Below, in pieces: positions 14,375 to 56,096 of a stretch of DNA of 64,000 nt. This DNA is from Fragilaria crotonensis (lineage: Eukaryota > Bacillariophyta > Fragilariophyceae > Fragilariales > Fragilariaceae). The notes under the pieces were generated by a model. The model was not told where the DNA came from and made no database searches. It worked only from the letters and a program-made list of their open reading frames with translations. Every line of letters starts with the position of its first letter. The stretch's first letter is position 1. The position numbers and the translations under genes are program-made. The stretch is taken from assembly GCA_022925895.1 (NCBI GenBank), contig JAKSYS010000055.1:62001-126000 (forward strand). The letters are read 5' to 3'.

Positions 14375-14872
14375 TCACAGCTTTGACAATGACTTCCCAC
14401 GCCATCGTAACAGTACCAACATCTCATTATCGTTGATTGGATTTGAAGTAATGCAAGGTCGAACGAGGAATATCAATTCCGCAGAAAGTTCACGAATGCT
14501 CATCTTTTTATGCTTGGGAATGGCCTTGATGGCCTCGCGAACCTCTTCGGCATTCCACTTTTTCTTGCGACCGCACTTGTTCTTCTGTGGCGACGAGCGG
14601 AAAGCACGAACACTTGGATCTTCAATGTTTTGGATTGCGCGTGCCCAAACTCGTCGGATCGTTTGCGGATTAACTTGATACGATTCGGCCACCGCCGACA
14701 GGACTCCGCGTCGTAACTTTTTCGGATTACCCTCTTGGACGGACAACACCAAGGTCGACACTATTCGTTTCCTATCATCCGATGTGAGTTCTCGTTTTCG
14801 TTTCTCCTTCTGTTCGGGAGCTGGTCTATCAGTGCTAGTGGTAACTGGTTGATCGGGCGACTTTGAGTCCAT
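14375..14872 (-). pseudogene. Mariner-like transposase N-terminal HTH part, copy 1
   Basis: From the ATG at 14872 the protein has a charged leader, then a helix-turn-helix region of the DUF7769 type (ELTSDDRKRIVSTLVLSVQEG, VAESYQVNPQTIRRVWARAI), a GRKKKW linker and a second HTH (MSIRELSAEL). Compared with copy 2 one base is lost near 14475, so the closing EIPRSTLHYLKSN segment goes out of frame. The DDE catalytic domain is absent from both copies, so this is a truncated Tc1/mariner fragment, or conceivably a kept DNA-binding protein. Confidence 0.7.
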
Positions 14873-15920
14873 GGCGAGTCAAGGGTGCAAAAAGGTGTAT
14901 CTTTGAGAAATGCGATTGCAGCACGAAACACATCGAGTAAAATGGCGAGCATTCCACGCTTGTCGTGTTGTGTCACCATTATCACCGAAATGTGTATGCT
15001 TGTCAATACAAACAGAAGGAACTTTATAAAGGAAAACTTCTTAAAATATAAGAGAAGTCTTTTGATGTGTCTGAGTCACACCCGGACAAATCTTATCGAA
15101 GAGATTTCTCTTATACAGATTTCCTTTACGATTGTTCCTAAATCCCAGTCGCCATACGTGGGGCAGCTGGGGCTATTCCGTGCAGACGACGTGTGCAAAG
15201 GGATGCTGGGTTCAATCAAGTTCGAAGTCAAACGTCGACGATGACAACAACTGTGACATGTCTATAGCGAAATTGATCAACACTGCATGACTCCATAAAA
15301 GAGACTTATGTCTTATTCGACGCATGCATAGATCGGAGTTATCTCAAAGTCTTGCTTCTCATGAACTCCGTTTACCACGACCGAGCGGTACTTGTATCTG
15401 GTACTCGAGAACCAAAACTTTGCTGCCTCTTGGTGTTGCCCGCCAGTCTGCGAAACGTGTGTACACCCTGTTCCGCTCTTGCGATCGAGCTAAGATAAAA
15501 TAGCACTCCGAGTACCATGTTTCGTTTACTAGTCGACCCCAACCGCGATGTCCTGAATTCATATGGTGTTCGGGATTATAAACTTTGGGTTCGCATTGCA
15601 TTTCGAATTTATTTCTCAATTCGAGCTTATAAACCACGATTCCAGTAGATAAGCGTTATGGAGTAGGTACAGGAGAGGCTGTGGTTATTCTTTTTCTGTC
15701 GGTCAATTTGTCCTCAGCCAGCTGCGACAGGGTGGCTATGTCCCCCCCAGGTTTTAATACTAAAACGTGCCAGAGAGTGCCAGTGTTTTGAAACGCACAT
15801 TGCACATTGCAAGTGTTTGTCTTCTTTTCTTGTGAATTTCTCCCATACCATCCTACTCCACAACAACAAAATCGCTTTCGCCACAGCACGTTAATGACCA
15901 ACTGCTCGCCTGCCTACAAC

Positions 15921-17255: not shown

Positions 17256-17858
17256 AACGTAAACCACCTTGAACTGATCACAGCACACACATGGTAATGT
17301 TTTTCGCAATATCAGCGACTTTAAATAGGGTATTTTAAAACTCATTTGTATGTAGTACTTATGAGCTTCAAGAACGATGCTGAGATCGCTGACCGTCTCA
17401 TGTTCGAAGTGCATGCTTTGGACAACTTTGGGGACTGATTTAAAAGTGACCACGCACTTCCTTCGGACTGACCCTTTCGCAGAATGTGAAAAACAAAAAC
17501 ACGATTTTGCCAAGACTGACAAGAAGGGAAGAACTCCTTCACTCATCCAATCAAGCCAATTCAATATTCAGTGATTGACCTGACTCCACATTTGGAGCAT
17601 GTCTTCAAGCATGCGTTTCAAGAGCACGAATGTGAAATGTTGTGGAGTCGAATTCGAATGGATCGAGTCAACTCGCAATCGAGTGTCTCACAAGATGCAG
17701 CAATACCACTTCTGATCCGGTATCACCTACTCCGAGAATAGTAGTTCTTCGGATCCTCTGGACGGGCAGAGGGGTGTGGTCAAATCAAATGAACCAGGCG
17801 GAAGTGCATCACAGCTGTTGAGAATCACTTCCCACGCCATCGCAACAGCACCAACATC

Positions 17859-18209
17859 TCATAATCGTAGATTGGATTTCAAGTAATGCAAGGTCGAACG
17901 AGGAATTTCCAACTCCGCAGCAAGTTCCCGGATGCTCATTTTTGTATGCTTGGGAATGGCCTTGATGGCCTCGCGAACCTCTTCGGCATTCCACTTTTTC
18001 TTGCGACCGCACTTGTTCTTCTGTGGCGACGATCGGAAAGCACGAACACTTGGATCTTCAAAGTTTTGGATTGCGCGTGCCCAAACTCGTCGGATCGTTT
18101 GCGGATTAACTTGATACGATTCGGCCACCGCCGACAGGACTCCGCGTCGTAACTTTTTCGGATTACCCTCTTGGACGGACAACACCAAGGTCGACACTAT
18201 TCGTTTCCT
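17859..18209 (-). pseudogene. Mariner-like HTH fragment, copy 2, C-terminal piece
   Basis: The sequence matches copy 1 from SDDRKRIVSTLVL through MSIRELAAELEIPRSTLHYL and ends KSNLRL. The N-terminal codons are cut off by LINE-1, which entered at 18226 in the opposite orientation. Those codons survive at 27497-27595. Confidence 0.75.
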
Positions 18210-18225
18210 ATCATCCGATGTGAGT
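18210..18225 (+). repeat. LINE-1 target-site duplication, left
   Basis: ATCATCCGATGTGAGT, repeated without mismatch at 27497-27512. The unduplicated site survives in block 1 near 14775. Confidence 0.95.
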
Positions 18226-18321
18226 ACACAATTTCTCATTTAGTTTTTTCGCATATACGTTCTGCCCGTCGACCGTTATTGCGTACGCTTAATAGGAAGT
18301 TGTTGCGTGAAAAAATCCACC

Positions 18322-21300
18322 ATGACCATGCCAAACGGAGCGGCCTCTGACCTCCCGCTAGCTTATCCTGATGGTTGGGATTCTAAGCTGTCTCCATATG
18401 GTTTCCATTGTGACAAGTGGATCGATCAACCAATGACAAACGGACCGGATTGGTTTTCTTCGGAGGAAAGAGCTCGACGAGAGGCGAACGCATACGCTTA
18501 TCGTCAGACAGGTACCAAAGAGAATTGGAGTCGTTACATCTCTCTTGGTTATTTTGTTTTTGAGGATTGTTTCGAATGCGATAAGATTTGGGCGGAAATG
18601 GAGAGGGACCCTCTCCAAGTTCATCGTTCGATCTGGTATAATTTCCGTTCTTATGTCGACCAAGAAATGGATGTTCCTTCCCAGTTGAATATGTGGGCAA
18701 TGAACGTTTCTCGAGCATACCTTTCGCATTATGATCCCTCCACCCTTCATAATACGGATACGTTGGCCTACTCATGGAAGACGATGCCCTTCATGGTGAC
18801 ACCTATGGACGTCGATGACCAAGCTGATTGGATCCCAGTGACGAATCGTCGACGCTCTAAAGCCCCTAAATCTCTACCTCCAGAAGAGCTTCCAAAGCTG
18901 ATAATCCCGATCTCGAGGTCGTCCAGGTTCTTCCGCGGAAAATAGAGGAACTCGCACGTTGTTCGACAAAACAAGTTTCCTTCCAGTAAAAACTCGTGCC
19001 CAACCCAAATCGTGGTCTCAAGGATTGCCACCAGTTACAACAGTGTTGGAAGATGACGAAGAAAGTGACGGAGAACAGCAGCCACCAATCGACGATCCAG
19101 AAGTTACTGTTTTCTCTCGAGGAACTTCGAAAGAACAGTCTAAGGTTGTCCCACATAAAATGTTGCAATGAATGATGGAACTCACAGAGTGACAGTTAAG
19201 TGGAGTCCCTCGGAGAATCCTCATACCTATGAGAGCGATAAGAAGAAACTCAATGACAGCATCCATGAGCTACTTTGCACTATGATTCCACCAGAAATTG
19301 GAATCTTTTACCGTTGGGAAAGCGAAGATCTTGTAATGTCAAACCCAGCTCAAAACATGACATCCTCTGAGCTTCGCGACTTCATATCTCCAGCAATCAC
19401 ATTTCTTCATGCGCAACACAGAATCGTCTTCGGCATGAGGATTGGTTTTGTCACCACACCAAATCAGTGGCTGCGCTCAGATGCAATGAAAACGCTTTTT
19501 AAATCAAAGCAGATCGAAGTATCAGTTTCAAACTCAAAAAGCACGAGCGGGAAGATGGTTACAGCAGGATACGTGTTGTTCAAGGCCCCGAACACTACTC
19601 AACTTTCCTGGTATACGCAATTCTTGCGCAGCGTTCTCCCAGACACAGCGCCGTATTTCGACGTAGTCCGATTTAAAAAGACCCCAATGGATCAATTGAT
19701 TCCCCACCCGGATTCAATGCGGAGAAAAGCACGTAACACCCCTTTGCCAAGCGTTGCTTCCTGTTCTAACTGGTCGCGGTAGTGCGTTATTCTTACCCCG
19801 TTACGCCTTGGGCACCATGACAGACGAAAAAATCAAAAGCCACTTTCAATTTCATGAAAAATGGGCCCGATCGCTCAAGGCAATCACTATGTCTCCACAA
19901 GTTAACCATTTGGATCAACAGAGAACTGAATATAACGAAGATGGTACCACAGTTGAGCGATCTACTCGGGAATGGATGTCCACCATTCTGGCACCCGATA
20001 AGGCATCTCCCGCATTGTGCGATGTCGTGAACGGACTTCCAGATCACAAAGCATATCTTCTTGTTCCAAGTCATTATCACGCATTCGTTCAACAGGCATG
20101 GAGGAATTACAAATCTCGCTTGTATCCCCCTAACCATCGAGAAGCACGATTTCGAGACACGTTGCCGGGACTACCCGATGTTATCCACATTCAAGCGGAA
20201 ATCAAGTCCCAAGTATCATTTCTTGAACAACTTTCCGGGGCGTCAGTCTGGCAACAAGATGGCTTACCAGCAGATCATCAGGAAGTTACCACGGGCAGTT
20301 TACACAACGAGGATCAACCTCCTAATGACCACCAATCACTGGCGCGTCGTTCTGCATGGCCGACCCCAGCCGAAGGAATTCGTCAATCAACAAGTCGCAA
20401 CCGAAAAGAAAGTTCCAAAAGCCGGTCTCACCAACACCATAACGACGCTTTCCAGAGCACAGGAGGCGGCACTTCCTTAGGTTCTGACGATGATCGCAGC
20501 ACCGCATCCACCCGTTCGCTTACTAATGGTTCGAGATTTTCTACACCGGATACTAGATTCCAAGATCTAGAGATCGATGCAACAAAAGTTACTGGAGTTA
20601 GAAATGTCAGGAAGAAATCTTCTGATCGTCTCCTTTCTATGGAGCATCAATTTAGTCGCATCGAAGACCTGGACAGGAAAGTAGCTGCTGTTAACGATAA
20701 ATTGGACCGCGCGGCTGTACAGATGGATGAATCACATACGACGCAACAACACATCCTGAACGATATGGAAGGGATTAAGACCCAAACGGCAGCGCAATTC
20801 GAGGAAATAAATCAACGTTTATTGTCTAACATGGAGAGTCAACACAAGATGTCGACTACAATGTTAGATTTACGAGAACATTTTGAGAAGATGTCAAATT
20901 TTTTGGAGAATTTGGCTACAAAAATGGAGGTCGATCGGAAGAATGCTGTTGATACAACGATGCAGGTGAACTATGCTCGTGCAGCTTCCTCGGCTACTCG
21001 CGATTTAAAGTTCCACGACTCACAATCAACGAGCAGTGCTAGTACAGGTTCATCCAAGTCCAAAGCTTCAGTGCAATCCAATGCATCATCATCAGTGTAT
21101 TGTTCCCCAGAAGAAAAAACAGCGATCCCAACGTAAAGAGGATATCAAACTACAGCACACGTGTGATGACGCTGAGAATTTCTTCAAAGAGTCGAACGAT
21201 CGTCATAGCCCGAGCTATATGGATGTTTGTACAAACTTAGACGACGCCTTCAGCCATCAGCAGGATTCTCAACGCTCCTCAGAAGTCGAGCAAACGCTTC

Positions 21301-21410
21301 CTACGTCAAGTGTTAGGCCGACGAGTCTATCGAATACTCTACCATCTACGGCTCCTCTAGATCCACAATACAAAATTTCTACGGATCTAGATGGGGCGGA
21401 GTGTTTATGA
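18322..21410 (+). CDS. LINE-1 ORF1 protein (frame-interrupted)
   Basis: The start is the ATG at 18322 (CCACCATGACC). About 1,000 residues if the frames are read through. The N-terminal third has no recognised domain. The middle has a segment conserved with LINE-2 (NDGTHRVTVKW, YTQFLR, PDTAPYFD). Near 20620-20960 is a long coiled coil (EHQFSRIEDLDRKVAAVNDK onward), which suggests multimerisation as in other LINE ORF1 proteins. No zinc knuckle or RRM is seen. The stop TGA at 21408-21410 overlaps the ORF2 ATG. Frame changes occur near 18900, 18945, 19165, 19700 and 21110. Function is inferred by analogy: RNA binding and RNP formation. Confidence 0.75.
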
Positions 21411-24400
21411 GTATTCCAGTTGGAAGCCTAGTGTCCTTCGACGAGTCCAACACACTTGCAACTGCAGTCGATTCTATGTCCGCATTGGCTCAGGCACAAG
21501 CACAATGGAAAAACTTGTTTAGTAGCAGTTCTACATATTCCAACGACAAGCAGTACACTATTCCGGATCGTGAACCCAGCTTACTAACGCGGAAGAATCA
21601 AAGGGAGAACGTGCCATGGGGAGACATCCTAGCGGAAAAACCGGTCAATACAACACGTGTATACGTTCAAAACGTGAATGGGCTTTCATTCGATAGCCGT
21701 GGAGGGCAACTTAACGACGTTTGCAAAGTTATACAAGAAACTCAGGCGGACATTTTCTGCGGTCAAGAACATAATCTCGACGTCACACAAATGAATGTTA
21801 GGAGTGTATTATATGACACTATTCGGCAGTACTGGGAACGGACTAAATTCATCGCAGGTACGACGCCAATCCCTTTTTCGACGTCGTATAAACCAGGAGG
21901 CACATTCTTATTGACAACTGGATGCCTTGCTGGTCGCATCGTTAACCAAGTGCAAGATAGATGGGGAAGATGGGTCATTCAAGAATTCTCAGGCAGGTCC
22001 GGAATCAAAGTTGTTATTGTGTCAGCATATCAACCAGTCGATAAGAGAGGACATGTAGGGACGCTAACAGTGTCAAGTCAGCATCGAAGTCTCCTCTTGC
22101 AATCTCAAGATCCTGTTACCAATCCCCGATCTGCTTTCCGGCGAGATCTATTGCTAGCATTGCGGTCTTATCAACGAGCGGGTTCCGATATCTTGCTGGT
22201 CGGTGATTTTAACGAAGCATTCGGCACAGATGCTGATGGTCTGAGCTTTATCGCAGGCGAATTACAGCTGATTAATTTGAGCTCCTCTCGTCATTCATCC
22301 CATGTTCCAGCGACATACTCCAGAGGATCGAAGTGTCTAGATTATGCCCTAGGGAGCCCTCGTCTTGGAGCAGCATTAATTGCGATGGGATACGAAGCAT
22401 TTAACGTCAGGTTATCATCCGATCACCGAGGATTTTTTCATCGATTTTGATACGGATAAATTGTTCGGAAGTCCAACTCCCAATCTCGCGTCTCCTAACA
22501 GACGAATGCTCAAAGCAAACAATATACATCAGGTTACCGCATATATCGACACTATGTATGAATTTTTGTTGGCCCATAATGCATTTCAAAGAGGTAGGAG
22601 ATTAACGTATCCCGGCAATCGGCACCAATTTGCAGAGCGATTGGACCGAGATGTTTTAGCGGCCGGTTTGGCGGCAGAAGCAAAAATCCCCCTCAGTTCG
22701 GCGTGCCGGCATGGTCTCTGGAATTGTCACGAGCAAGGCAACGAGTGCAATATTTGAGGAAATGTTTATCAGCTTTTCGAACCCATCTGGATCACGCAGG
22801 GATTATCCAGGAGTATATTATGATGTTTCCGGAAGACGAAGTCCCAACACATCAACGCCACTGTTCTCGGTTACTTCGGTCGGCAAATAGCAATATCCGT
22901 CTTCTGGTTAAACAAAGTTTTAATACTCGCGGAGCAGAACGTCAGCAGCGAATCCAAGAATTGGAAACATCAACACGCGCTTCCGACAGAGAAACTGCCC
23001 AACGATTGCGTCGATTGCAAAAAGCCGAAGATATCAAAGCCGTGACAAATAAGCTGCGGAACGTCAGAGGGAAAAATCATAGTAGTGGGGTAGTTCGGTT
23101 AGAAATTCCGTTACATTCTGGAGATGATCCGAAAGCTTGTACTCAATGGCAACAAATCGAAGTTCCCACGGAGATTGTTCGTCTTCTTCAAGAACGGAAC
23201 AGACTTCATTTCGGACAAGCGCACGGGACTCCATTCACAGTCTCCCCATTGGCCGATTTGCTGGGGTATACTGGTTTCGGGGGAGGCCCAGCAACAACTT
23301 TTAAGGGGCACGTTCGACACTACAGGTTACGAAGAGAACGTTCAATTGCTTCTCAATCACCTTCGGTATGCTCACAAGGCGGTTGAAGAAAACATCCGAC
23401 CAACTATCGATGACGGCGATTTCTGCGCCAAACTGCGTTTATGGTCTGAATCTACTACAACATCTCCTTCAGGCATGCATCTTGGACATTATAAAACGCT
23501 TATCGCACGGCATTCCTATTCGTCGGATGTATCAGATGAAGAGTTGGAACCAGAGTTTATAGAGAGACGTGACGAACTGAATTTTCGACAACAGGCAATA
23601 CGCCAATTGCGGCTAGATCTCCTGAATTATGCGTTGGAGAGAGGTTATTCATTTCAGCGATGGCAAAAAGTGATCAACACCATCCTTTTCAAGGATTCAG
23701 ATAACGTGCGCTTGCATCGCACCAGGGTTATCCATATCTATGAGGCGGATTTCAATTTGTTCCTCGGAATTAAGTGGAGAGCAGCTATGCACCAGGCGGA
23801 AGATTTACGAATTCTGAATGAAGGACAATTTGGGTCTCGACCGTATCGAAATGCAACGGAGCCGTGTTTATAGAAGAGCTACAACTTGAAATCTCAAGGG
23901 CTACTCGCAAACCTTTGGTCCTCACGAATTACGATGCAACTGCATGTTACGATCGGATCATTCCTAATCTAGGGATGACGGTTAGTCAAAAATATGGAGT
24001 TCCTGCACCAGTCACTGTGAGTAACGCTTCGACCTTGGAAAAGACAGAATTTCATGTGAGGACCGATCTTGGAATATCCCCGACCAGCTATCATCACGAA
24101 GAGTCTTTTCCAATCTACGGTACAGGCCAGGGAAGTGCTAATTCCCCCGCAATCTGGTGTTTTCTTTCCAGTACGTTGTTCGATTGCTACGATACTCAAG
24201 CATCGGAAGCGATGTATTGGGATACATGTGGCAGTGTAACCGCGCGATTGGGTATGATTGGTTTCGTAGACGATTGTAACGGACAAACTAATGCATTTCG
24301 AAGTGACGGATCTAGCGAGACCGTTAAACAAGTGGTCTCGCAAGCTCAAGATAACGCTCAATGTTGGACCGATTTATTGCACGCAAGTGGTGGCGCTCTC

Positions 24401-27367
24401 GAATTATCCAAGTGTTCGAGTCATATTCTCCAATGGCAATTTTCCATAACTGGTGCTCCTGTCTTAGTACCATCTCATGTCTCAAACGACGTCTGTATCG
24501 AAGTTCGAGATCATTTATCGAACTCGGCGCAACATTTACAGTTGCTCTCAGCATACACAGCGCACAAGACACTGGGACATTATAAGGATCCGGCTGGAAC
24601 CCAGCGAGAACAATATCGACAATTGAAAAAGAAAAGCGATTCCATCACAGCTTTCCTATGGGTTACACCGCTCAATCGATCAGAGGCATGGACGTATTAT
24701 TTTGCATACTACCTCCCAGCCGTGTGTTACCCTCTCGCAAGTTCTTCCCTCACGCCTCAATGTCTTGATCGAGTGCAAAGGAAGGCCATGTCCATCATCG
24801 TTCCCAGATGCGGATTTAATCGTCATACCAAGCGAGCCATTCTTTATGGCCCTTTAGCTCTGGGAGGAGCGAGCTTTCGGTCATTGGTGGTCCAACAAGG
24901 CATCTCCCAGGCGATGATGTTTATTCGCCAGTGGAGGAATAATTCCATCGCAGGAAAGTTACTTCGGATCGCTGTTTCGTGGTTTCAGGCGCAAGTCGGC
25001 GTATCATTCCCTATCCTGGAGCACGTTCAAGAACCCTACCGCATTTAGAATCGAAATGGATTCGGTCCCTCCGGGATTTTCTGGCGTCCATTAACGCTAA
25101 ACTCCGCCTAGATACTCCGTATTTGCCGGAGCTCCAGCGTCTACACGACGTTTGCATCATGGATGTTATTCAATCTTCAGGGAAGTTTACTCTACCGAGA
25201 TCTGCAAGTTGAATTATTGCCGACTGTATTTGAATGTTGTTACAATATCGGACATAACCTGTGTGAGTGGCAAGCGGTTGGATTCTAACAAGCTATCGGG
25301 AAACCACTCTCGGCTCAGTAGTTATACTCATGGCACCTCAATTTATCAAGAACGACCGTCGGAGTCCACGTGGGCACTTTGGAAGAAAGCTAACAGGCTA
25401 TGGAGTACAAGCACTGACGACCTTATCCAACCCTTGGGTGATTGGGTTCTACCACTTCATAAACTCCGGCAGCGGCACCCCGCATATTGGTGGTCAGGTC
25501 GATTGTGGGTCTTGATACAAGATCAGTATATCAAATGCAATTTGGTTTCGGACCGAACCTTCCAAGAAACTGCAGTTTCGTGCGATTGGGCCGAGCTCCC
25601 AACTCTCGCAGTTCCGATGTTCGCAGTGCAATCTACGCCTGGGAGCTGGACAATTACCCAACAGAGTTATGTTTTAGAAGTGAATGATCCGCCGATGTCA
25701 GGAACGTTTACACAATATGTTGCGGCACTCCCGGAATGGGAGTCAGAATTACTGCGTCACACTGAGATGTTTGAGGACCCCTTCACAGTAGCAATGGCTC
25801 TTGAACACGGCGTTCGTGCAGTAAGTGATGGTTCAGATTGGAACCAAGAGCAAGGAGCTTTTGGTTGGACGATGAGTACCGATAGAGGCGAACGATGCGC
25901 ACAAGGCATGGGCCCTGCAAGAAGTTCTGCTCCGAACGCCTATCGTTCTGAAAGTTATGGATTATTGTCCCTCTTGTGTTTCCTTCGCAGGTTGGCTGAG
26001 TTTACAGGTAAACACGATCAATGGTATGGAGTTGTGGCCACGGACAGTCAGAGTCTGATCGACACTGTACTTCAGCGGAATATCAAACAAGAGCACTCCG
26101 GCGTTGATAGTACTTTTATCGGCGGCGCACAGCGTCAGATCAAGACCCATCCGCTCGACCCAACTCTCCCAGATTGGGACGTTATTCGTGGAATTCAGGT
26201 TCTTCTTCAACAAATGCCAGAGTTAAAATTGAAGCATGTTAAAGGCCACCAAGATCGTGATATCCCATATCGGCATCTATCCTTGTTGGCCCAGTTGAAC
26301 GTTGATGCTGACGCGCAAGCATCACAATATCAAAGAGATTTGGGTTCGTACCGGCCAGACGTGCTCCTTACCGAATGGGCAGGGGTTCACTTGGAGTTTC
26401 CATCGGGCACAGTCACAGCCCATTATGAAGCAGCGTTACGATATCAGGCAACTGCGCCCGCGTTACAGGCTCATATGCAGGAGCGACACTCCTGGTCACC
26501 ACAAACCATGGCAGCGATTAACTGGAAAGCTCATGGCTCAGCGCTCCGACGCCATCTGAAGAAACGCACATTTCTGGTAAAACTGGTTCACGGTATTCTT
26601 CCGACGAATCTTCACCTCCATCGATCAGATCAACGACGCAATCGTTGCCCAAGTTGTCAAAGCGTAGCCGAAAGCTGGCAGCATATCCCGTGTTGTCCAT
26701 CCGACGCTCACACGTCGTGGCGAAATTCGTTCCTCAAGACAATGGAAGTGACATGCACCAGGCTCGGGACGATGCCACATTTGCAGGTACTCCTGCTTCG
26801 AGCAATTCGAGAGTGGTTGCATCCACACAGTGAAACTGTGTTTACCGTTCAATTCCGCGGAGGAGATTCTCCAGCACTTCGGCGTGTCATTTTCCAACAA
26901 AACGCAATAGGCTGGGAGCACATTTTGTTGGGACGATTTAGTAGCGAATGGAGTCGTCTTCAAGATGAATATTATGCTCGACGGGCACAGTCCACGGAAA
27001 CGAAGCGGCAAACAGGTCAGAGATGGCAAATTGCAATCATTAGTTCCATATGGAAACAATGGTTCCTTATCTGGGCGATTCGAATAAAGCCCTACACGGA
27101 GCGGACTCACGACTGCAGGCACAAGCAGAGCGAAGAGAAATTGAGCGACAGCTGTCCGACGTGTACGATCTTCGACCTCAAATGGAGCCTAGCGTTCGAC
27201 AATTGTTGCACCGAGATCTCACCGAGCATTTATCTAAAACAGTGGCATACAACAAAAACTGGTTATCGGTTTATGGTCCGATAGTTAAACAGAGTATCAA
27301 ACGTGCGAAGGCAAAGGCCATACAAGGAGTTAAAGCGATCACACATTATTTCGAGAAGCTCAAGTAA
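21407..27367 (+). CDS. LINE-1 ORF2: endonuclease, reverse transcriptase, RNase H
   Basis: The ATG at 21407 overlaps the ORF1 stop as ATGA. An apurinic-like endonuclease spans about 21640-22440, with QNVNGLS, GQEHNLD, SAYQPVD, GDFNEAFG, LDYALGSP and SDHRGF, so all catalytic motifs are present. The reverse transcriptase spans about 23440-24900: motif A NYDATACYDR (23924), B GTGQGSANSPAIW (24118), C GFVDDCNG (24261). The RNase H at about 25820-26320 has SDGS, ESYG, TDSQS and VDADAQA (D-E-D-D). A C-terminal CCHC knuckle (CPSCQSVAESWQHIPCCP) is at about 26645. Frame changes lie near 22440, 22690, 23300, 23865, 25030, 25200 and 27050. The last residues match LINE-2, so the stop at 27365 is real. 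Confidence 0.9.
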
Positions 27368-27423
27368 GTAATTTGGAGGGACGTATACTATGCTGGCCGC
27401 TACTGGTACACGGTAGTGTCTAG

Positions 27424-27496
27424 CCGTGTGGGTCGAGTGTTTTTAATCTGAACACAGCGGCAGCACGTTAAATTAGATTTGGGGTTTTTTTTTTTT
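27424..27496 (+). other. LINE-1 3' stem-loop and poly-T tail
   Basis: CCGTGTG (27424) can pair with CACAGCGG (27453-27460) with one bulged base. It is followed by GCACGTTAAATTAGAT and then GGGGT12 ending the element. The same arrangement occurs in LINE-2, where the loop sequence differs while the pairing is kept. It is probably the part of the RNA recognised by the reverse transcriptase. Confidence 0.65.
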
Positions 27497-27512
27497 ATCA
27501 TCCGATGTGAGT
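27497..27512 (+). repeat. LINE-1 target-site duplication, right
   Basis: ATCATCCGATGTGAGT, identical to 18210-18225. It directly follows the T12 tail. Confidence 0.95.
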
Positions 27513-42596: not shown

Positions 42597-42880
42597 TTGC
42601 TACATCAAAAGAAAACATGTTAAAACATATTTAGCTAATAGAAAGAATGCACGTTTGTTTGCAAACTGGGATTAGCTTTTCACTCACAATACAGATAGAG
42701 AGCACACATTTACCAGACACTCAGTATTTAGTAGGATTTGAAACACCGCAGACTCTGAGTCGTTTAAGTTATATACGTTCAGATATAGACGCACACTATC
42801 ATATTGTTCCTGCTGAAAATTGAGAACCAATACTAGTAATCAAAAGTCCAAAAAGTTTGTAAAATCAACGGGAATCATCG
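42597..42880 (+). repeat. 284-bp tandem duplication, copy 1 (uninterrupted)
   Basis: It begins TTGCTACATCAAAAG and ends GGGAATCATCG. It is almost identical to the next copy and keeps the unoccupied LINE-2 target (CACTATCATATTGTTCCTGC near 42795). Confidence 0.95.
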
Positions 42881-43095
42881 TTGCTACATCAAAAGAAAAC
42901 ATGTTAAAACATATTTAGCTAATAGAAAGAATGCACGTTTGTTTGCAAACTGGGATTAGCTTTTCACTCACAATGCAGATAGAGAGCACACATTTACCAG
43001 ACACTCAGTATTTAGTAGGATTTGAAACACCGCAGACTCTGAGTCGTTTAAGTTATATACGTTCAGATATAGACGCACACTATCATATTGTTCCT
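42881..43095 (+). repeat. 284-bp tandem duplication, copy 2 (split by LINE-2)
   Basis: It matches copy 1 from its start to the TSD. The remaining part lies at 52205-52268 beyond the LINE. Only a couple of differences separate the copies (one substitution, one 3-bp gap). Confidence 0.95.
43082..43095 (+). repeat. LINE-2 target-site duplication, left
   Basis: ATCATATTGTTCCT, identical to 52191-52204. Confidence 0.95.
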
Positions 43096-43196
43096 ACACA
43101 ATTTCCTAGTTTGGAGTTTTTACATCGAGTTCTGTCCTTCGACCGTCCATCAGTAGAAACAGTAGGAAGTTGTTGCGTACCTCCGCACCGTTCACC

Positions 43197-46067
43197 ATGA
43201 CTGAAGGAACGGCCCCGTTGCCGTTCTTTGCGTCTGATAACCCCCCTGATGTTACCGCATCTGTGTTCAACTTTACCATCGTTGCCTATGTTCAAACTCC
43301 TGCTTTGATTGAGCGCGAGAATGATTCGAAAGCAGCGATTGAAAATCGAAAAGTCGATGATGATAGTTACCGACGCTCGGTTTCACCGACCAGTTGGCAC
43401 CGGTTCACTACCTTAGGATTTCAAGCAACGCATGGCAAAGACTTCGATATGATTTGGAGAGACCGTAACTCCAATCCCTTTGTTTTCATCGACTCGTATG
43501 GTATAACTACAAGGCTTACGTTGATCGTGAATGCAATGTTAACCCTAAGTTACACGCATGGGCAACCAACGTCTCGCATCCATTTTTACTCGAACATTCA
43601 CCAGAATCGTTGGAAATGGACACAGAACGGTTTAGTTGGCCACGCATTCTTGCTCATTTTGCTAAACACTTAGACAAAGGTCTGTGGAAAGCAGTAAAGG
43701 GAACGAATAAACGTAACGAAAAAATGTCGACAGATCTATCTCCAACCAAACATTTCGACAATGAGGAATTGGACAACCACGGGAAAAGCGCACGATTCAA
43801 CATTCCTGTTCCCGAGATAACTGAAGACAACAATTCGGATCAGTTGAGACCAGAAATCGAGGAGGTCGCTACGTTGATGACAAACATGACAAACCAGGAT
43901 GTCGGAGTGGATTCGGACTCTGAGTCTGATGCTAAGCAATCGGCGTTTACGCTGAGCAACGAGGTTAGGACAAATGACGGCACGCATCGCATTTCGATTA
44001 AATGGAAATTATCCCCGAAGGAGTTCACGGAGCTGGTCGATAACAAAACTCGTCTCCACTCAGAAATCTTTTCGGTTTTGGGCGTTGTATTTCAGGAGAC
44101 TGACGGGTATTTCTACCAATGGGATAGTGATGAATTGATCTATCCAAAAAGAGCCCACGAGTTGACTGTTTCGGATTTGAAAGACTACTTAGAGCCTCAA
44201 ATCACGACAGCTCAGTCTCTGCACTTGGTCGTTTTTGCAGTACGCTTCGCTTTCGCCGAGAATCCTATTTCGTGGAGGAATTCCACTCACGTCCAATCCG
44301 CTATGAAACTGAACAATCTTCAGATTCATGAATCCAATGTCAACACTACCGCAGGAATTCCAGTGGTGGCTGGGTATATTCTACTGAAACATCCGACGAT
44401 GACTTTAAGGCATAAGTATACACAATTCCTCAGGTCTCGAATCGTGGATACGTTGCCTTACTTCGACATTCGCCTCCATCGGAAGACACCAACAGACAAG
44501 TCGATCGCCCATTTGGTGGTATACTGCGGGAAAAACAGGTGACAGATCTATGCCAAGAGCTCTCGACAATCTTGAACGGACAAAACACGGCTGTGTTCCT
44601 CCTCGATACACATTTGCAAATATGACAAACGATCAAATCGACAACCATTTCAAGATGCATGAAACGTACATCCGGGCATTACAACCAATCTCATTGGCAC
44701 CGCTTGTGACAACGTTAGATTTGAAACGGGTGGAGTACTTTCCAGATGGCACGACAATCGAAAGGTCGACTCGCGATTGGGTTTTGTCCTCAGACGAGAG
44801 GACGGGGACACACATGCACAATGCGATGTGGTAAATGGAGTAAAGAACGTCAGAACTGCATATGTCATGGCTCCTGCGGCTTATGTGTCAGAAATTCGAG
44901 CGATGGTGGCGAAATACAAGGAACGTCTACGACCGATTGCTCGCCGAGAAGCAAAGTATCGAGAAGGGATTCCAGACTTACCAGATGTCATTCACATTAC
45001 ATCTACTGTTCAAACTAACCTAGACTTTATGGCAAAAATGTCCTCCAGCGATATTTGGAGTAAAGCTCCGCCATCGGTCAAAGCCTTGTCTTCTGCTGTC
45101 GCATCAGCTGCAGCAAACCGTACAGCTCCGTCGGACGCATCGGCCAACAGTGACAATACCGCTCAGTGGCCGTCGTTGGTAAAACGACCAGGACTTGACG
45201 TCTCTAATCCGATCAAGTCAGTACCTAAGTCGGGTGCCAATCTACCGCGTAAGGGGAAACCAAAAACTCAACTGGACATGCATGGTAAATCATCCCATAT
45301 CAGTCTCACGTCGGAAGAAGTTGATGACCGAGCCGACACAGCCTCTACCCATTCTCTGACCAATACGTTGAGATCGTCAACGACCATGCGGATGATGGAG
45401 TTGGAAAACCAGATGCGCGAATGTCGAGAACTCCTACGTTCGAACAGGGAAGCAGCTCGAGACTCGTCGGACAGATTGGCGGCAAACGAACAAAGTCTTC
45501 GAGAAACTATGGAGACCATAACGGAAATGACACATACAGTGGCTGGATTACAAACGCAGTTCGCGGGTTTCAACATCACGATGGAGAGCATGCGACTCAT
45601 GTTGCACACACTGATGCATCAGTCAAGCGGCAACAATGTTCCAGTCGAAAGTAACTTTTCATATTCAGCTTTTCCGTCGTTTCCAATGCCGCATCATCAG
45701 TTGACGACAATTTCTGAATCCACTCGCACAACTGAGTTACAAGGCACGGGGGACAGCACATCCGTGGCATCAGAGGACTCAATGTATCGCAGATCTCCCG
45801 AGAAGAAGAAAACGAGGAAATACGATGAGCAGAATATCTCGAATTCAGCAAGTCCCCCAGTCGACCTTGAAGATGTTCAAATGTGCCTTTTCGAGGAAGG
45901 ACCCCCAGCAGATGAAACTCAGGACACTGTTATTGCCAATGCTTTATCGGGCCAATCTAATGACGACCTCGTTCGACAATCCACGTCACAAACTCACAAA
46001 CAAAATTCAAGCCCCGGACGCTCAATACACAAATCCAAGTGATCCGGCTGGGCGAGAGGACACGTAA
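43197..46067 (+). CDS. LINE-2 ORF1 protein (frame-interrupted)
   Basis: The ATG at 43197 lies in TTCACCATGACT, homologous to the LINE-1 start. The conserved middle segment reads NDGTHRISIKW and YTQFLRSRIVDTLPYFDI. A coiled coil lies at about 45380-45640. Basic and acidic low-complexity regions follow. One frame stops at 46042, but alignment of the ends (DAQYTNPSDPAGREDT with DPQYKISTDLDGAECL in LINE-1) shows the true stop is TAA at 46065-46067, overlapping the ORF2 ATG. Frame changes lie near 43640, 44530, 44595, 44790 and 45850, mostly single-base losses. Confidence 0.75.
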
Positions 46068-49000
46068 TGAGCCAATACAAGCGAGTGTCGATGGCATCTG
46101 AGACGGAAACTGAGTTACCGTCAAACGATGCACAGTCAGTCGATTCCGGAACTTCGATTCCTATCGACAATGAAACGTCAATTCCCATAAGTATATTGAT
46201 AGCGCGAAGTTACAATGGCGACAGCTATTTTCCAAGCCGATTACGGACAATGATTCGAGACCAACGACACTGACAACTCTGAACATGCGTTCTAACGTCC
46301 CTTGGGGAGATGACTTGGGACCCAAAGACTCGAGTATCATAAGACTCTATTCAATTAATGTCAATGGCATTTCTATCGACCGGAGAGGAGGCACGTTTGA
46401 TGACATTTGCCGGTCAATCAAAGAGGTCCAGGCGGACATCTTCTGTGGGCAGGAACATAACTTAGACACTACGCAATTTCGAATTCGGAGCGCCTTGTTT
46501 GAATCAGCAAAACAACATTGGAAGCGACATCGAATATCTCTCGGAACGACACCAATAACGGTGGAAAATTCTTATAAACCGGGGGGGACAATGATTTTGA
46601 CGGTAGACAGCTTGATGGGACGTATTGTTCGTCAGGACCGTGACCCATGGGGACGATGGGTAGTTCAGGAATTCACAGGCAAAGGAACACGCAAGATTGC
46701 TGTTTTTTCAGCCTATCAACCCGTGGACAAGGCGATTAGCCCAGGTACCATTACAGTGGCGGCTCAACATGCGAGCCTCCTCAGACTGACACAAGATCAA
46801 GTTCTGAACCCGCGAACAGCGTTCCGAGGGATCTGCTGAAAGCGTTACAGACATACGCATCGGTCGGCACGATGTTGCTGGTAGTAGGAGATTTCAACGA
46901 AGTTTTGGGGCTGACCCAGATGGTATGAGCAAGATCGCAGGGCAATTGGGTCTCATCGATGTCTTCGCAAGGCGAAATTCTTCTACACCCCCAGTCACTT
47001 ATGCACGTGGTACGAAACGTCTGGACTATGCACTTGCTAGTCCCGCTGTGAGTGATGCTGTGATTTCCGCTGGATACGAAGCATTCAATGCACATATAGT
47101 GTCTGATCACAGAGGCTTCTATCTCGATTTTGACTCCAATGTCCTATTCGGTTCCGACACTCAAAAATTGGTATCAGCAGAAAAGAGGGACCTGTCGTCG
47201 AATAATACACAACAAGTGACGGAGTACATCCGGGAGAAATATCGGATTCTGTTCCATCATCACAACGCCTTCGTTAGGAGCGCACAATTGACACAACCTG
47301 GCAATCGTCATGCTTTTGCAGAACGACTGGACCAAGATGTTTTGACGGCAAGCTTGGCAGCAGCAGCAAAAGTGAAAAAGTTTGGAGAACCCGCATGGTC
47401 GGTGGAACTTGCCGAAGCTCGCAAACAAGTTGTTGTACTGAAGAAGCATTTGTCAGCTCTTCGCACACACTACGACCATTCCAGTGTCTTAGCGCGCGAG
47501 ATGGCTCAATTATCAACACCAGTGCCGTTGCCCCCTACACCGCGTGAGTGTTCTGCGGAAATTCGCAAGGTTGAATCATCCATCAAGGCAATCATAGCTG
47601 AGAGCTATGAACGTCGAGATCAAGAACGCCAACGAAAAATTGCAGTACTCGAAGCGACTGGGAAGCAAGCGGACAAAGAATCAGCAACTCGGTTGAGACA
47701 TATGAAAAAGGCCGAAGATATCAAGCAGTTATTTCGCAAGATTAGTGGCGTACGGAAGAACAAATTAAGACAAGGAGTAACGAGAATTGAAATCCCCTTG
47801 CATCCAGACGACAATCCCAAGATGTGTACTGAATGGCGACAGATAGATGTGCCAACTGAGATTGTTCGGCTATTACAGGAACGCAACCGGGCTCATTTCG
47901 GACAAGCAAAGGGAACACCCTTCACTGTTGCACCACTTCTTGACGACTTAGGCTTTTGTGGGGATCGACCCTCGAGTACGAGGATTTTGGACGGCACATA
48001 TCAACTCCGGACGAACGATGACGATGACGTGAGTAAAAATGTGAGACTCTTGTTGCAGCACATGACACAGGTTCACGAAATGGCAGCGTCCCCCTCGTTT
48101 CCAACCATCTCAATGGACGACTTCATGAGTAAATTGCGCGTCTGGTCGGAATCCACCACCACGTCTCCGTCAGGATTACACCTCGGACACTATAAGGCCT
48201 TGATTGCACGACATTCATACTCATCAGACCTCCCAGATGATGAATTGACCCCAGAGTTCCGAAGAAACCGAGACGAGCTTGACATGATGCAAAACGACCT
48301 GCGGACTTTGCACTTGAATCTGTTGAATTATGCGCTTGAGCGAGGCTATTCGTATAAACGTTGGCAAACAATTGCCAATACAATCCTCTTCAAAGATCCG
48401 GATAACGTTCGGTTACATCGTACTCGAGTGATTCACATTTATGAAGCGGACTTTAATCTCGCCTTGGGAATCAAGTGGAGGATTCAGATGTATCAAGCCG
48501 AGGCCCTGGCAGCATTAAATGATGGGCAGTATGGGTCTCGACCACGACGAAATGCAACGGATCCAGTGTTCATCGAGGAACTCCAGTGTGAGATCTCTCG
48601 CCACTCGACGGTCAGTGGTCTTGATCAATTATGATGCGCTTGCATGTTTCGACCGAATGATTCAAAATGCAGCAATGATTGTTAGTCGGAAGTTCGGCGT
48701 TCCGCTTCCAGTAACTCAGGCCAATGCAGTAACCTTGAGAGAGCGGAGTTCAGGGTCCGTACAGAATTAGGCCTCGCTCCAAATGGTTACGTACATTCGG
48801 ATAGCAAGCCCATCTATGGCACGGGACAGGGCAGTGCCAACTCCCCAGCGATCTGGTGTTTTCTGTCGAGTTGTCTCATGGATGCCTATGACACGACTGC
48901 AACACCTGCGGTATATTATTCACCGGATGAAAGCACGTCAGCGTCTTTGGGATTAGTAGCTTTTGTGGACGATTGCAATGGGCAGGCGAACAATTTTTTA

Positions 49001-52000
49001 GCACCAGGATCTGATGAGACGCTTCGGGATATCTTGGTACGCACGCAGAAGAATGCACAATTGTGGAATGACTTACTCCACTCGAGTGGTGGCGCACTGG
49101 AATTATCCAAGTGCTCGTGCCAAGTACTCCATTGGTGGTTTACACAGCAAGGAGCACCATTTTTGGCCCCAAAACAATCTGCTCACCAAGAAGTGTTGCG
49201 TGTCATAGATCGCGCCACCGGCACGACCCATCAACTACCTTTACTGTCACCGTATGAGGCACATAAGACATTAGGGCACTATAAAGCACCAGCTGGGAAT
49301 CAAACCGAACAATTTCGAAAACTCAAATCAAAGAGCGACGAGATAACGACCTTCCTGTGGACATGCCCCCTTACGCGACTCGAAACATGGACTTTTTATT
49401 ATGCCTGCTACCTCCCAAGTGTTGGTTATCCACTAGCGTGCTCATCCCTTACACGACAACGACTGGATCAGGTACAACGGAAAGCGATGGCGATCATTGT
49501 CCCACGTTGCGGTTTCAATCGGCATACCAAGGGCGAGATCCTCTACGGTCCTTTGGAGTTGGGTGGGGCGAACTTCCGTCATCTCTATGTTGAACAAGGC
49601 ATTGGGCAAGTGTCCCTCTTTATGAGGAATTGGAGATTGAAATCGACAGCGGGGAAACTCCTTCGCATTGCAGTCGGATGGTTCCAACACCAAGTCGGTA
49701 CCTCATATTCAATTCTGGAACGAGTCGACACGGTCCTCCCCCATCTAGAATCCAAGTGGCTGGCCTCGCTACGCGACTTCTTAGCTTCCATACAATCAAA
49801 CCTCCAACTTGACAATCCGTGCATTCCTAAGATCCAACGTTACCATGACACACATATTATGGACGCTATATTGACTTCTGCGTGGTTCTCAGCATCGGAG
49901 ATTCGACGCCTCAATTATTGCCGCCTTTACCTTCAGGCCCAAACAATTTCCGATCTCACAGAGGTTTCGGGGCGTTATCTGGATCGAGCGAAGTATGAAG
50001 GTCGCTTCTCGCATAATAGTAGCTGCACGCACGGCATGTGGATCCACCAGCAATGCCCGTCGCCTGCGGAGTGGAAATTGTGGCAGCGAGCGAATTTGTT
50101 GTGGAGTGATGAATCTGGGAAGTTACATCAGGCATTGGGTCCATGGTTAGACACCATTGATAATCATCGTCAAACTCACTCAGCCTATCAACTGAACACG
50201 CGTTTGTGGCTGCGAGAACATCAAGATTACAGACTGTGTAAATTGTCGAACAGGACCGAGGAGGGACAGTACGGTTATTGGAGGACTGGAACACTGTGCG
50301 AATGGCAACAGATTCCTCTCGAGGCGTTTCCTGTGGAGGTTTGTCAAGTTGCCGAGGAAGAATGGACTGTAGTTGAGAGAAGCGTCGTTCGTGTTCCTCA
50401 TCATCTGGTACATGCTGCAACGTTTGAACAATACGTTGAAGATCTTGAGCCGTGGGAGTATGACTTATTATCTCGCACGAACCTACCGACGGATCCCTTT
50501 TCGGTCGGACTCGCCTTATCTCAGGGAGTCCGTGGTGTCAGTGACGGGTCGGTTTGGCTTAAGCAAATGGGTGCGTTCGGATGGACGTTGAGCACAGATT
50601 TGGGAGAGCGATCGGCTGAAGGGATGGGCCCAGCCCCAGGAGCAAATCCTAATTCGTATCGGTCTGAAGCGTATGGAATGTTGGCCATGTTGTGTTTTTT
50701 GAAACGCCTCGCAGAGTTTACGTACCAACATGAACCGTGGTGCGGCACACTCGCGACCGATAGTTTGAGTCTGGTGGAGACGGTTCTTGGCATTAAACGG
50801 AAACCATCTGTGATGGAGGCCGCGGTATCGGAACCGGAACCCGTGCAGCTTCCATTGGATCCTCTGAGCCCAGAATGGGACTTGATCGTTAATATCCGTC
50901 GGTTGCTTTGCGAAATGCCGGGGCTAAGCCTGGAACATGTACGAGGTCATCAAGATCGTCGCGGCACCTATCAGCGATTGAGTCTCTTGGCACAACTCAA
51001 TGTGGATGCCGACGACCTGGCCAACACTTTCCAGCGTGAGTATGGCGCGATTCGACCGCTTGCCTTGTTGACAGAGGAGGCTGGCGTTCACTTGATTACA
51101 CCGAAGGGAACCGTCACCACGAAATATAAAACAGCCATTCGACATCAAGCGACCTATGGTCCATTATTAGCTCATCTTCAAGCACGAAATGGATGGAACG
51201 CTAGTACGACAGAACGGATCAATTGGAAAGCGCACGCTGCATGCCTCCACAAGCGCATCAAGCGACGAGATCACTACATCAAGTTAGTTCAAGAAATACT
51301 ACCGACTAATCACCGGCAGCATAGACGGGATCCTAGCCGCAGAGGGTGTCCGGTGTGTCCGTGTGGTGATGAGGATTGGGACCATATTCTGCGATGCGCG
51401 CATTCGAGTCGAGCGGCGTGGCGAGCGAACTTACTCACGGTCATTGGAAAGACTTGTGCCAAATGGGAAACTCGTCCCGGTCTACGAAGTATCCTCCTGG
51501 ATGGTATCAAGGGTTGGTTTGAGTGCGATGATCCAGAGTCGTATCAATTAGAAACGGCGATCTACGACGACGAATACGAACGCCTCATTACACAACAAAA
51601 CAAGATTGGTTGGAGACACATATTTCTTGGCAGATTCAGTTGTGAGTGGGTCGATTTGCAGGACGCCCATTATGCCACAAGACCAAATTATAACTCGAAG
51701 AAAAGCAAAAAAGGTTCCAAGTGGCAGGTTGCTATGATTGGGCGATTGTGGGACAATTGGTATCTGCTATGGGAAAGCAGAAACAATGATTTGCATGGAG
51801 CAGATGCCAGGCTGAGCGCGCTTGCGGACAGGAGGAATGCATTACAAACATTGAGGGAATTGTATGCGTTACGCAACATGTATGAACCGACTGTTCAGGA
51901 GTTATTGATGGAGGATGTTCGAGATCACGAAGCCAAGTCAACGTGGCATATAAAGACCTGGTTGCAGATAAATGAACCGATTCTGAGATTAAGCGTGAAG

Positions 52001-52063
52001 AGGGCGACTAAATTAGCGACTTCGGGGATGCGATCGTTAAAGTCATATTGGGCACAACGATAG
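46067..52063 (+). CDS. LINE-2 ORF2: endonuclease, reverse transcriptase, RNase H
   Basis: It starts at the ATG inside TAATGA (46065-46070). The endonuclease (about 46300-47120) has SINVNGISIDR, GQEHNLD, SAYQPVD, GDFNEV, LDYALASP and SDHRGFY. RT motifs are INYDALACFDR (48621), GTGQGSANSPAIW (48818) and AFVDDCNGQ (48959). RNase H has SDGSVW, EAYG, TDSLS and VDADDLA (50535-51015). The C-terminal knuckle is CPVCPCGDEDWDHILRCAH (about 51345). Frame changes near 46260, 46830, 46910 and 48765 each fit one missing base (AA to A, GGGGG to GGGG, GG to G); near 48595 a GC pair is missing. The last 1,061 codons are uninterrupted. It is close to intact. Confidence 0.92.
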
Positions 52064-52119
52064 GACATGAGAAACTACCAAGTTTGTGGGGTCCAGCCTA
52101 CTCCCAGGCTACGGTCTCA

Positions 52120-52190
52120 CCGTGTGGGTCGAGCGTCTATATAACCCGGACACAGCGGCAGCACGTTAAATTAGATATGGTGTTTTTTTT
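52120..52190 (+). other. LINE-2 3' stem-loop and poly-T tail
   Basis: CCGTGTGGGTC (52120) faces GGACACAGCGG (52148-52158). Compared with LINE-1 the stem is kept and lengthened although the loop differs. GCACGTTAAATTAGAT follows, then TGGTGT8. Confidence 0.65.
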
Positions 52191-52204
52191 ATCATATTGT
52201 TCCT
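52191..52204 (+). repeat. LINE-2 target-site duplication, right
   Basis: ATCATATTGTTCCT directly after the T8 tail. The host repeat then resumes with GCTGAAAATTGAG. Confidence 0.95.
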
Positions 52205-52269
52205 GCTGAAAATTGAGAACCAATACTAATCAAAAGTCCAAAAAGTTTGTAAAATCAACGGGAATCATC

Positions 52270-56040: not shown

Positions 56041-56096
56041 ATAACGACCGAAGAACCGACCTGACTCTCGAAGAACAGAAGTCCGTCGAAAACACA

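What the first reader, a model, noticed from the sequence alone, without database searches (positions are those of the whole stretch)
18226..27496. LINE family whose sense strand ends in poly-T, not poly-A
Seen: both LINEs end in a T run (GGGG + T12 at 27485-27496; GGTG + T8 at 52183-52190) directly before a perfect target-site duplication, with both ORFs on the same strand, so the RNA 3' tail would be poly-U. Known: most LINEs end in poly-A or short A-containing repeats. Inference: 3' uridylation, an encoded U tract, or a primer-slippage mechanism specific to this clade.
Basis: partly seen in the sequence, partly recalled or inferred. Interest (0 to 1): 0.85.

Follow-up and report, generated by a model that had tools for sequence, protein, structure and literature searches.

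The report
LINE family ending in poly-T tracts
A family of self-copying DNA elements in a small eukaryotic genome ends in a run of T on its coding strand instead of the usual run of A, together with a shared folded RNA tail that a short parasitic element has borrowed, so its copying enzyme probably starts on a U-ending stretch of RNA.

Summary
Both LINEs in the window end in a T run (T12 at 27485-27496, T8 at 52183-52190) directly before a perfect target-site duplication, on the strand that encodes endonuclease and reverse transcriptase. Both insertions have an unfilled paralogue of the target in the same window, without the T run, so the T run came with the element. In the genome (62 Mb) the rule is general: 20 of 20 copies chosen by protein match end in T6-T18, and 58 of 62 distinct 3' junctions read have T5 or more, none an A run. 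Just before the T run lies a conserved RNA domain with covariation on the sense strand. A 0.2-kb SINE-like repeat carries the same domain and a T tail. Fifteen of 15 accepted target-site duplications have T at their start (consensus YTRT). Best reading: a stringent-type LINE whose reverse transcriptase binds the folded 3' end and starts in an inherited U tract, priming from an A-ended nick. Uridylation of the RNA is not excluded; pol III transcription of the LINE is unlikely. Poly-T SINEs are known in plants and a poly-U-using LINE had been proposed; ten searches of open papers showed me no LINE with a pure poly-T end.

The parts
18226..27496 (+). LINE-A, full-length copy (starts ACACAATTTCTC, ends GGGG+T12); ORF2 split over several frames
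18210..18225 (+). 5' target-site duplication of LINE-A (a further T at 18209 may belong to it)
27497..27512 (+). 3' target-site duplication of LINE-A
27485..27496 (+). terminal T12 tract of LINE-A
27425..27467 (+). conserved 3' RNA domain of LINE-A (15-pair structure with covariation)
14774..14789 (+). empty paralogue of the LINE-A target site, no T run
21671..22426 (+). endonuclease domain of LINE-A (Pfam Exo_endo_phos, E 2.2e-12)
23888..24415 (+). reverse transcriptase domain of LINE-A (Pfam RVT_1, E 1.6e-4, below the curated cut-off; motif FVDD)
25821..26320 (+). probable RNase H region, approximate bounds (DGS, E, TDS, H, D residues; motif recalled, no Pfam match)
43096..52190 (+). LINE-B, full-length copy (starts ACACAATTTCCT, ends GGTG+T8); ORF2 split over several frames
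43082..43095 (+). 5' target-site duplication of LINE-B (a further T at 43081 may belong to it)
52191..52204 (+). 3' target-site duplication of LINE-B
52183..52190 (+). terminal T8 tract of LINE-B
52121..52165 (+). conserved 3' RNA domain of LINE-B
42798..42811 (+). empty tandem paralogue of the LINE-B target site, no T run

Best explanation
This is a stringent-type LINE family with a U-tract start site. Shown from sequence: the copies read carry a 3'-terminal RNA domain (a five-pair outer stem, a four-pair inner stem and a six-pair hairpin of variable sequence, then about GTTAAATTAGATNTGGG) followed, with few exceptions, by T5-T18 and then target DNA; a SINE-like repeat carries the same end; 5'-truncated copies keep the T end; target duplications of about 12-19 bp (T not counted) are preceded by T. 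Inferred: ORF2 protein binds the folded 3' end of its RNA, its endonuclease nicks the bottom strand at 5'-ACA|G-3' (or 5'-AC|AG-3'; the two cannot be told apart), and the terminal A of the primer pairs with the U tract, so that cDNA synthesis begins inside an inherited U tract. Slippage there, and homopolymer slippage after insertion, set the tract length. The transcript is probably made by RNA polymerase II; how its 3' end is formed is not known.
For: T run not from the target: empty sites. Generality: 20 of 20 loci picked by ORF2 match end in T6-T18 (6 of the 20 had also been read in the blastn set); 58 of 62 distinct junctions T>=5, longest A run there 3; pattern core+N6+T6 166 hits against 0 reversed controls, the same with A6 1 hit (up to 2 mismatches). 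RNA domain: 46 sequences, 15 pairs, 94.3% of cells paired against 86.1% shuffled, 61 cells with both sides changed against 18.3 (0 of 500 shuffles as high), slid controls 7-17; GU cells 126 against AC cells 22, which favours the sense strand as the folded one. SINE-like partner with the same end. Priming polarity: truncated copies L016, L036, L069 and L055 keep the T end (distance from duplication to T end 144-1919 bp, full copies up to 9352). Target: 15 of 15 accepted duplications preceded by T, consensus C/T-T-G/A-T. No 3' transduction among L001-L030: the four pairs of loci with shared 3' flank share nearly the whole 1.5 kb, that is, duplicated loci.
Against: No RNA data: that the RNA ends in U was not seen. 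Duplicated loci differ in T length (T14/T8, T8/T7, T11/T8), so length variety does not by itself show slippage during integration. The T at the start of the duplication may reflect the cutting preference of the endonuclease and not pairing with U. Of the 5 dropped duplication candidates two (L046, L048) are not preceded by T. By minimum energy LINE-B and the SINE do not fold better than shuffles (z +0.46 and -0.90) and the antisense of LINE-A folds as well as the sense (z -3.96 against -2.88). Two weaker measures are only marginal (pairs with a change on both sides 8 against 6.0, 29 of 500 shuffles as high; further pair types 25 against 22.1, 17 of 500), and the structure tested was derived from part of the same sequences. 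Some copies have other tails: (TTTTG)n in L022, TTATATA in L027 and L028, TTTA in L059/L066, and one A6 pattern hit.
Confidence: 0.6

Rival explanations
1. The U tail is added to the RNA after transcription by a terminal uridylyl transferase, and the reverse transcriptase primes on that tail, as L1 primes on poly-A.
For: Near-identical copies end in T6 to T15, as expected for an untemplated tail; uridylation of LINE-1 mRNA is real in human cells, where it lowers retrotransposition (PMC11014359, passages).
Against: Tract lengths are modest and the junction after the G-rich stretch is regular; homopolymer slippage after insertion also explains the length variety. No RNA data.
Confidence: 0.2
2. 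The T run is made by the reverse transcriptase itself: repeated slippage or untemplated addition of A at the start of first-strand synthesis on a short U stretch.
For: Tails such as (TTTTG)4 in L022 and T9-G-T5-G in L024 look like repeated copying of a short unit; the eel LINE UnaL2 ends in TGTAA repeats that are linked to template slippage (PMC3747384, passage).
Against: Does not explain why the unit is nearly always pure T in copies down to 44% protein identity to LINE-B unless the RNA end is also U; overlaps with the best explanation.
Confidence: 0.15
3. The LINE is transcribed by RNA polymerase III and the T run is its terminator.
For: T runs end pol III transcripts; the SINE-like partner L063 has a box B motif and no internal run longer than T3 before its T5 tail, so for the SINE this is plausible.
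Against: The nine full-length LINE copies examined have 3-12 internal T>=5 runs and 1-3 internal T>=6 runs; in 6 of 9 the first T>=5 lies 19-22 bases from the 5' end; no box B in the first 500 bases of any of the 9.
Confidence: 0.04
4. The T run was in the target DNA, or is a chance microsatellite.
For: T-rich targets are common in other LINEs (recalled).
Against: Empty sites of both window insertions lack it; the 5' copy of the duplication has only one to three T before it in 15 of 15 accepted insertions.
Confidence: 0.01

Closest known systems
Stringent-type LINE/SINE pairs (eel UnaL2, zebrafish ZfL2, silkworm SART1)
   Same: Folded 3' end next to a short terminal repeat, shared by LINE and partner SINE; recognition of the 3' stem-loop by ORF2 protein is shown experimentally for ZfL2 (PMC4176376, passages).
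   Different: Terminal unit here is pure T; UnaL2 ends in TGTAA repeats and SART1 in poly-A (PMC3747384, passages).
Plant p-SINEs and Au-like SINEs that end in poly-T
   Same: T-ending short retroposons. [quoted passage not shown] Legume SINEs that end in Tn have duplications that start with T (PMC13295347, passages).
   Different: The partner LINE later reported in legumes is RTE-clade and ends in (GTT)n, with a T stretch about 10 nt upstream of the duplication (PMC13295347, passages); here the LINE itself ends in T, and 0 of 15 sites have TTT at -17 to -5.
LINEs with RNase H (I factor; some plant and oomycete L1)
   Same: EN-RT order, probable RNase H and a C-terminal CX2CX8HX3C motif in ORF2; RNase H in I factor and in oomycete L1 per PMC2881922 and PMC5348765 (passages).
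   Different: I element ends in TAA repeats and nearly all flowering-plant L1 in poly-A (PMC3747384); clade membership not tested.

Membership tests
LINE (non-LTR retrotransposon) | endonuclease plus reverse transcriptase in one ORF | tested here: met
   Exo_endo_phos E 2.2e-12 and RVT_1 E 1.6e-4 in LINE-A pieces; in L032 both in one 2010-aa frame, RVT_1 below its curated cut-off; RVT_1 in 8 of 14 and Exo_endo_phos in 4 of 14 aligned members, many of which lack the N-terminal part
LINE (non-LTR retrotransposon) | variable-length target-site duplications and 5' truncation with a constant 3' end | tested here: met
   15 accepted duplications; distance from duplication to T end 144-9352 bp, same 3' end
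Stringent-type LINE | conserved folded 3' end | tested here: met
   covariation with shuffled and slid controls; not visible by folding energy of LINE-B or the SINE alone
Stringent-type LINE | partner SINE with the same 3' end | tested here: met
   13 places where head and tail-side body are both matched; sequence read in L053, L055, L059, L063, L066
Stringent-type LINE | 3' end required for retrotransposition | not testable with these tools
   needs an assay
RTE clade / Au-like SINE machinery | T stretch about 10 nt upstream of the duplication (Tn-TA signature) | tested here: not met
   TTT at -17 to -5 in 0 of 15 sites; 17% of random 13-mers of the window have it
RTE clade / Au-like SINE machinery | first base of the duplication agrees with the 3' repeat (T with T-rich end) | tested here: met
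   T in 15 of 15 accepted sites
RTE clade / Au-like SINE machinery | short ORF2 of about 1000 aa without RNase H (recalled) | tested here: not met
   intact ORF2 of 1949-2071 aa in L032, L037, L044, L047; RNase H by motif only
L1-type poly-A LINE | poly-A end | tested here: not met
   0 of 62 distinct junctions with A>=5; 1 A6 pattern hit against 166 T6
RNase H-bearing LINE | RNase H domain | tested here: inconclusive
   invariant D1503, E1544, D1575, H1639, D1660 (motif recalled) but no Pfam RNase H match and no PDB match
tRNA-derived SINE | tRNA-like head with boxes A and B | tested here: inconclusive
   box B GGTTCAAGTC present, box A only with a mismatch (consensus recalled); no ARAGORN match in L063, no Rfam match in L053 or L063

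The most novel reading that the evidence does not exclude
The LINE has a U-ended messenger: its mature RNA ends in oligo-U, made by end formation or uridylation at the U tract, and its reverse transcriptase uses that U tail with A-ended nicks as L1 uses poly-A with T-ended nicks. It would be the kind of poly-U-using LINE that Ohshima proposed for poly-T SINEs, found in another eukaryotic lineage, and would turn a mark that lowers human L1 retrotransposition (uridylation) into the substrate.
Probability: 0.25. Interest if true: 0.85.

Novelty: new variant of a known kind. Interest (0 to 1): 0.62.

Why it matters
LINEs are usually thought of as ending in poly-A or short A-containing repeats, and models assume so. 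A large LINE family with a near-constant T end, a covarying RNA domain and a T-ended SINE-like partner in one small genome gives a natural system to ask which of three things sets the start of reverse transcription: the RNA fold, the terminal repeat or the nick. It also gives a concrete example of the kind of partner that was proposed but not identified for poly-T SINEs in 2013. Practically, annotation that looks for poly-A tails would orient or bound these elements wrongly.

Tried and rejected
Target-site origin of the T run: rejected by empty sites. Pol III transcription of the LINE: made unlikely by internal T runs and lack of box B. RTE-type Tn-TA target signature: not found. 3' transduction as a sign of read-through: none among L001-L030; shared flanks are duplicated loci. 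Relatives elsewhere: IMG/VR by one protein and by alignment gave none confirmed; two DNA-pattern hits there lack the rest of the domain and were taken as chance; one 30% identical stretch (query residues 429-530) in a contig labelled as a bacterial metagenome assembly lies about 250 bases from the contig end and was not read further. PDB searches gave no match. Clade placement of the RT was not attempted, for want of reference sequences.

Rows and choices behind the counts. Duplication search: 71 of 72 loci examined (L001 is LINE-A itself; several loci show the same insertion twice); null was six shuffled flanks per locus; 20 gave a score above it; 15 accepted, 5 dropped: L019 (same locus as L016), L038 (long duplication, see noticed), L046 (10 bp, preceded by C, inside conserved ORF2 sequence, taken as chance), L048 (3 mismatches, preceded by A) and L050 (offset, 1 mismatch, preceded by T). 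For LINE-B the upstream search was limited to start at 43001, because the first try matched the empty paralogue. Most of the other loci hold too little upstream sequence to find a 5' end. Junctions: L001-L030 were found with a query that included the T run; L031-L050 by protein match (20 of 20 T>=6; 6 of them also in the first set); L051-L070 are 20 of the 259 hits of the core pattern without T (18 of 20 T>=5). The 62 'distinct' flanks still hold near-duplicates (L023/L026). Covariation alignment A2: 46 of 50 distinct sequences; left out were L001 and L034 (represented by the window copies) and L029 and L055 (extra bases in the loop).

Full report
Check of the observation. LINE-A is 9271 bp (18226-27496) and LINE-B 9095 bp (43096-52190); both start ACACAATTTC and end in a G-rich stretch followed by T12 or T8, then a perfect duplication of 16 or 14 bp. 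The window itself answers this: each duplication occurs a third time in an unfilled paralogue of the target, at 14774 for LINE-A (100 bp on each side identical) and at 42798 for LINE-B, and there is no T run in either.

Generality. A blastn search with the last 197 bases found 107 candidates in the 62.1-Mb assembly, of which 40 were scored. Six copies of the LINE-A subfamily, 99-100% alike, end in T6, T8, T10, T12, T12 and T15 and then in unrelated DNA. A protein search with 1125 aa of LINE-B's ORF2 gave 48 pieces down to 42% identity (a capped list: 41 of 1200 candidates scored), with open frames up to 2116 aa. A search with the 3' core pattern gave 259 hits against 45 for the reversed pattern; with six T after it 166 against 0; with six A after it 1 against 0. 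Over all 72 loci read, with 62 distinct 3' flanks, 58 of 62 have T5 or more; the exceptions are L022 with (TTTTG)4, L027 and L028 with TTATATA, and L059=L066 with TTTA.

RNA domain. Upstream of the T run lies a domain with an outer stem CGTGY/RYACG, an inner stem GTCG/CGGC and a hairpin whose stem changes by compensation (GTGTT/AACAC, GCGTT/AACGC, GTATC/GATAC, TTGTC/GACAA). On 46 distinct sequences the 15 pairs form in 94.3% of cells (86.1% after shuffling), with 61 cells changed on both sides (18.3 after shuffling, 0 of 500 as high; slid versions 7-17); two coarser measures are marginal (29 and 17 of 500 shuffles as high). G-U cells number 126 and A-C cells 22, which favours the sense RNA as the folded strand. 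By energy alone the picture is mixed: LINE-A folds as predicted (z -2.9), its antisense also folds well (z -4.0), LINE-B (z +0.5) and the SINE L063 (z -0.9) do not stand out.

SINE-like partner. Among 20 loci fetched by the core pattern, L053 and L063 are short repeats of 205 and 215 bp with their own duplications (one mismatch in L053), a box B motif, the LINE 3' domain and a T5 end; L055 is a truncated copy (T7), L059 and L066 are a duplicated relative with a T3 end. Its tail-side body matches 22 places and its head 20 places; 13 places have both beyond the part that the two queries share. Neither ARAGORN (L063) nor Rfam (L053, L063) sees a tRNA in it, so a tRNA origin is a guess. No run longer than T3 lies inside L063 before the T5 end, which would suit pol III; the nine full-length LINE copies examined have 3-12 internal T>=5 runs and no box B in their first 500 bases.

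Target sites. Of 71 loci examined 20 gave a candidate duplication and 15 were accepted (dropped rows are listed under Tried and rejected). All 15 have T just before the first non-T base of the duplication (window T content 26%), C in 10 and T in 4 of 15 before that, G or A in 13 of 15 after it, and T in 11 of 15 at the next place. The junction consensus is thus YTRT, bottom strand AYAR. If the T belongs to the duplication, the primer ends in A, which can pair with the U tail; if not, the endonuclease cuts between pyrimidine and A. The DNA cannot tell these apart. The T stretch about 10 nt upstream that marks RTE-type insertions is absent (0 of 15).

Protein. Copies with long open frames have an ORF1 of 564-778 aa (L044, L032, L035, L047; no Pfam match above the curated cut-off in the two scanned, L044 and L032) and ORF2 of 1949-2071 aa (L032, L037, L044, L047), with an endonuclease (best E 2.2e-12, in LINE-A), a reverse transcriptase that Pfam sees weakly (8 of 14 members, best E 4.3e-6), a zf-RVT match in 3 of 14, and an invariant set of residues that looks like RNase H. 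In L032 and L037 the ORFs overlap by ATGA. There is no PDB match; a structure prediction did not finish.

Mechanism. Shown: near-constant T end, conserved RNA domain with covariation, a partner with the same end, truncation polarity, T-starting target sites. Inferred: ORF2 protein reads the folded end, nicks at 5'-ACA|G-3' or 5'-AC|AG-3', and starts cDNA inside the U tract. Duplicated loci with almost the whole 1.5-kb flank in common differ in T length in three of four pairs (T14/T8, T8/T7, T11/T8; T8/T8 in the fourth), so part of the length variety arose after insertion or in assembly. Whether the RNA ends at the U tract or runs on is open.

What is known. Passages of Ohshima 2013 (PMC3747384) state that almost all flowering-plant L1 LINEs end in poly-A and RTE LINEs in (TTG)n or (TTGATG)n, and that p-SINEs and Au-like SINEs end in poly-T and might be mobilised by unidentified LINEs that recognise poly-U. 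Passages of PMC13295347 report, citing their reference 29, that legume SINEs end in Tn while their RTE LINE partner ends in (GTT)n, and that the first base of the duplication agrees with the 3' repeat. A general review lists poly-A, short repeats or neither as LINE 3' ends (PMC2881922, passages). The paper cited there as reference 29 was not seen (an identifier that I guessed was not held). In ten searches of the library (several listings capped) I saw no paper describing a LINE that ends in pure poly-T; these cover open-licence PMC text only, and Repbase was not searched, so an unpublished or database-only example is quite possible.

Verdict. I rate it a new variant of a known kind (stringent LINE/SINE pair), interest 0.62.

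Noticed in passing
window 12232-14789, 15182-18225, 30140-32738: Three tandem units of about 2.5-3.4 kb, stretches 78-98% alike, each with a gene for a protein with helicase-associated (HA) domains (three matched stretches each); LINE-A is inserted at the end of the second unit.
   Followed up: partly
window 42596-43095 and 52191-52270: LINE-B sits in the second copy of a 284-bp tandem repeat whose first copy is the empty site; could be a true tandem repeat or two haplotypes placed in a row by the assembler.
   Followed up: partly
L038 (G000:C103), sense positions 981-1275 and the 3' flank: The 3' flank of this LINE (295 bp, 99.7% identical, up to the end of the fetched stretch) is repeated upstream of the element and begins at the insertion junction: an unusually long target duplication or another duplicated target.
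   Followed up: partly
L022, L024, L051, L009: Some T tails hold spaced G: (TTTTG)4 in L022, T9-G-T5-G in L024, T7-G-T4-G in L051, T10-G-T6 in L009; may record template slippage or mixed tailing.
   Followed up: no
L027 and L028: Two copies of one subfamily end in TTATATA instead of a T run: a tail switch within the family.
   Followed up: no
L056, L057, L058 (G000:C53:76817-79381): Three copies of a further repeat with the same 3' domain lie in a row within 2.6 kb, with a doubled tail GG-T8-AA-T8/9 in two of them.
   Followed up: no
G000:C383:147570, C20:43234, C152:56790, C195:21371, C665:23385: Places that match the SINE head (78-81%) but not the tail-side part of its body: possible related short repeats with another 3' end.
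   Followed up: no
window 179-1814 (-): Gene for an RNA lariat debranching enzyme (DBR1 domain E 1.5e-27, metallophosphatase domain), in two overlapping frames.
   Followed up: no
window 56037-56978 (+): Gene with an HSF-type DNA-binding domain (E 6.3e-13).
   Followed up: no
L032 and L037, ORF1/ORF2 junction: Stop of ORF1 and start of ORF2 overlap as ATGA, which suggests coupled re-initiation of translation.
   Followed up: no
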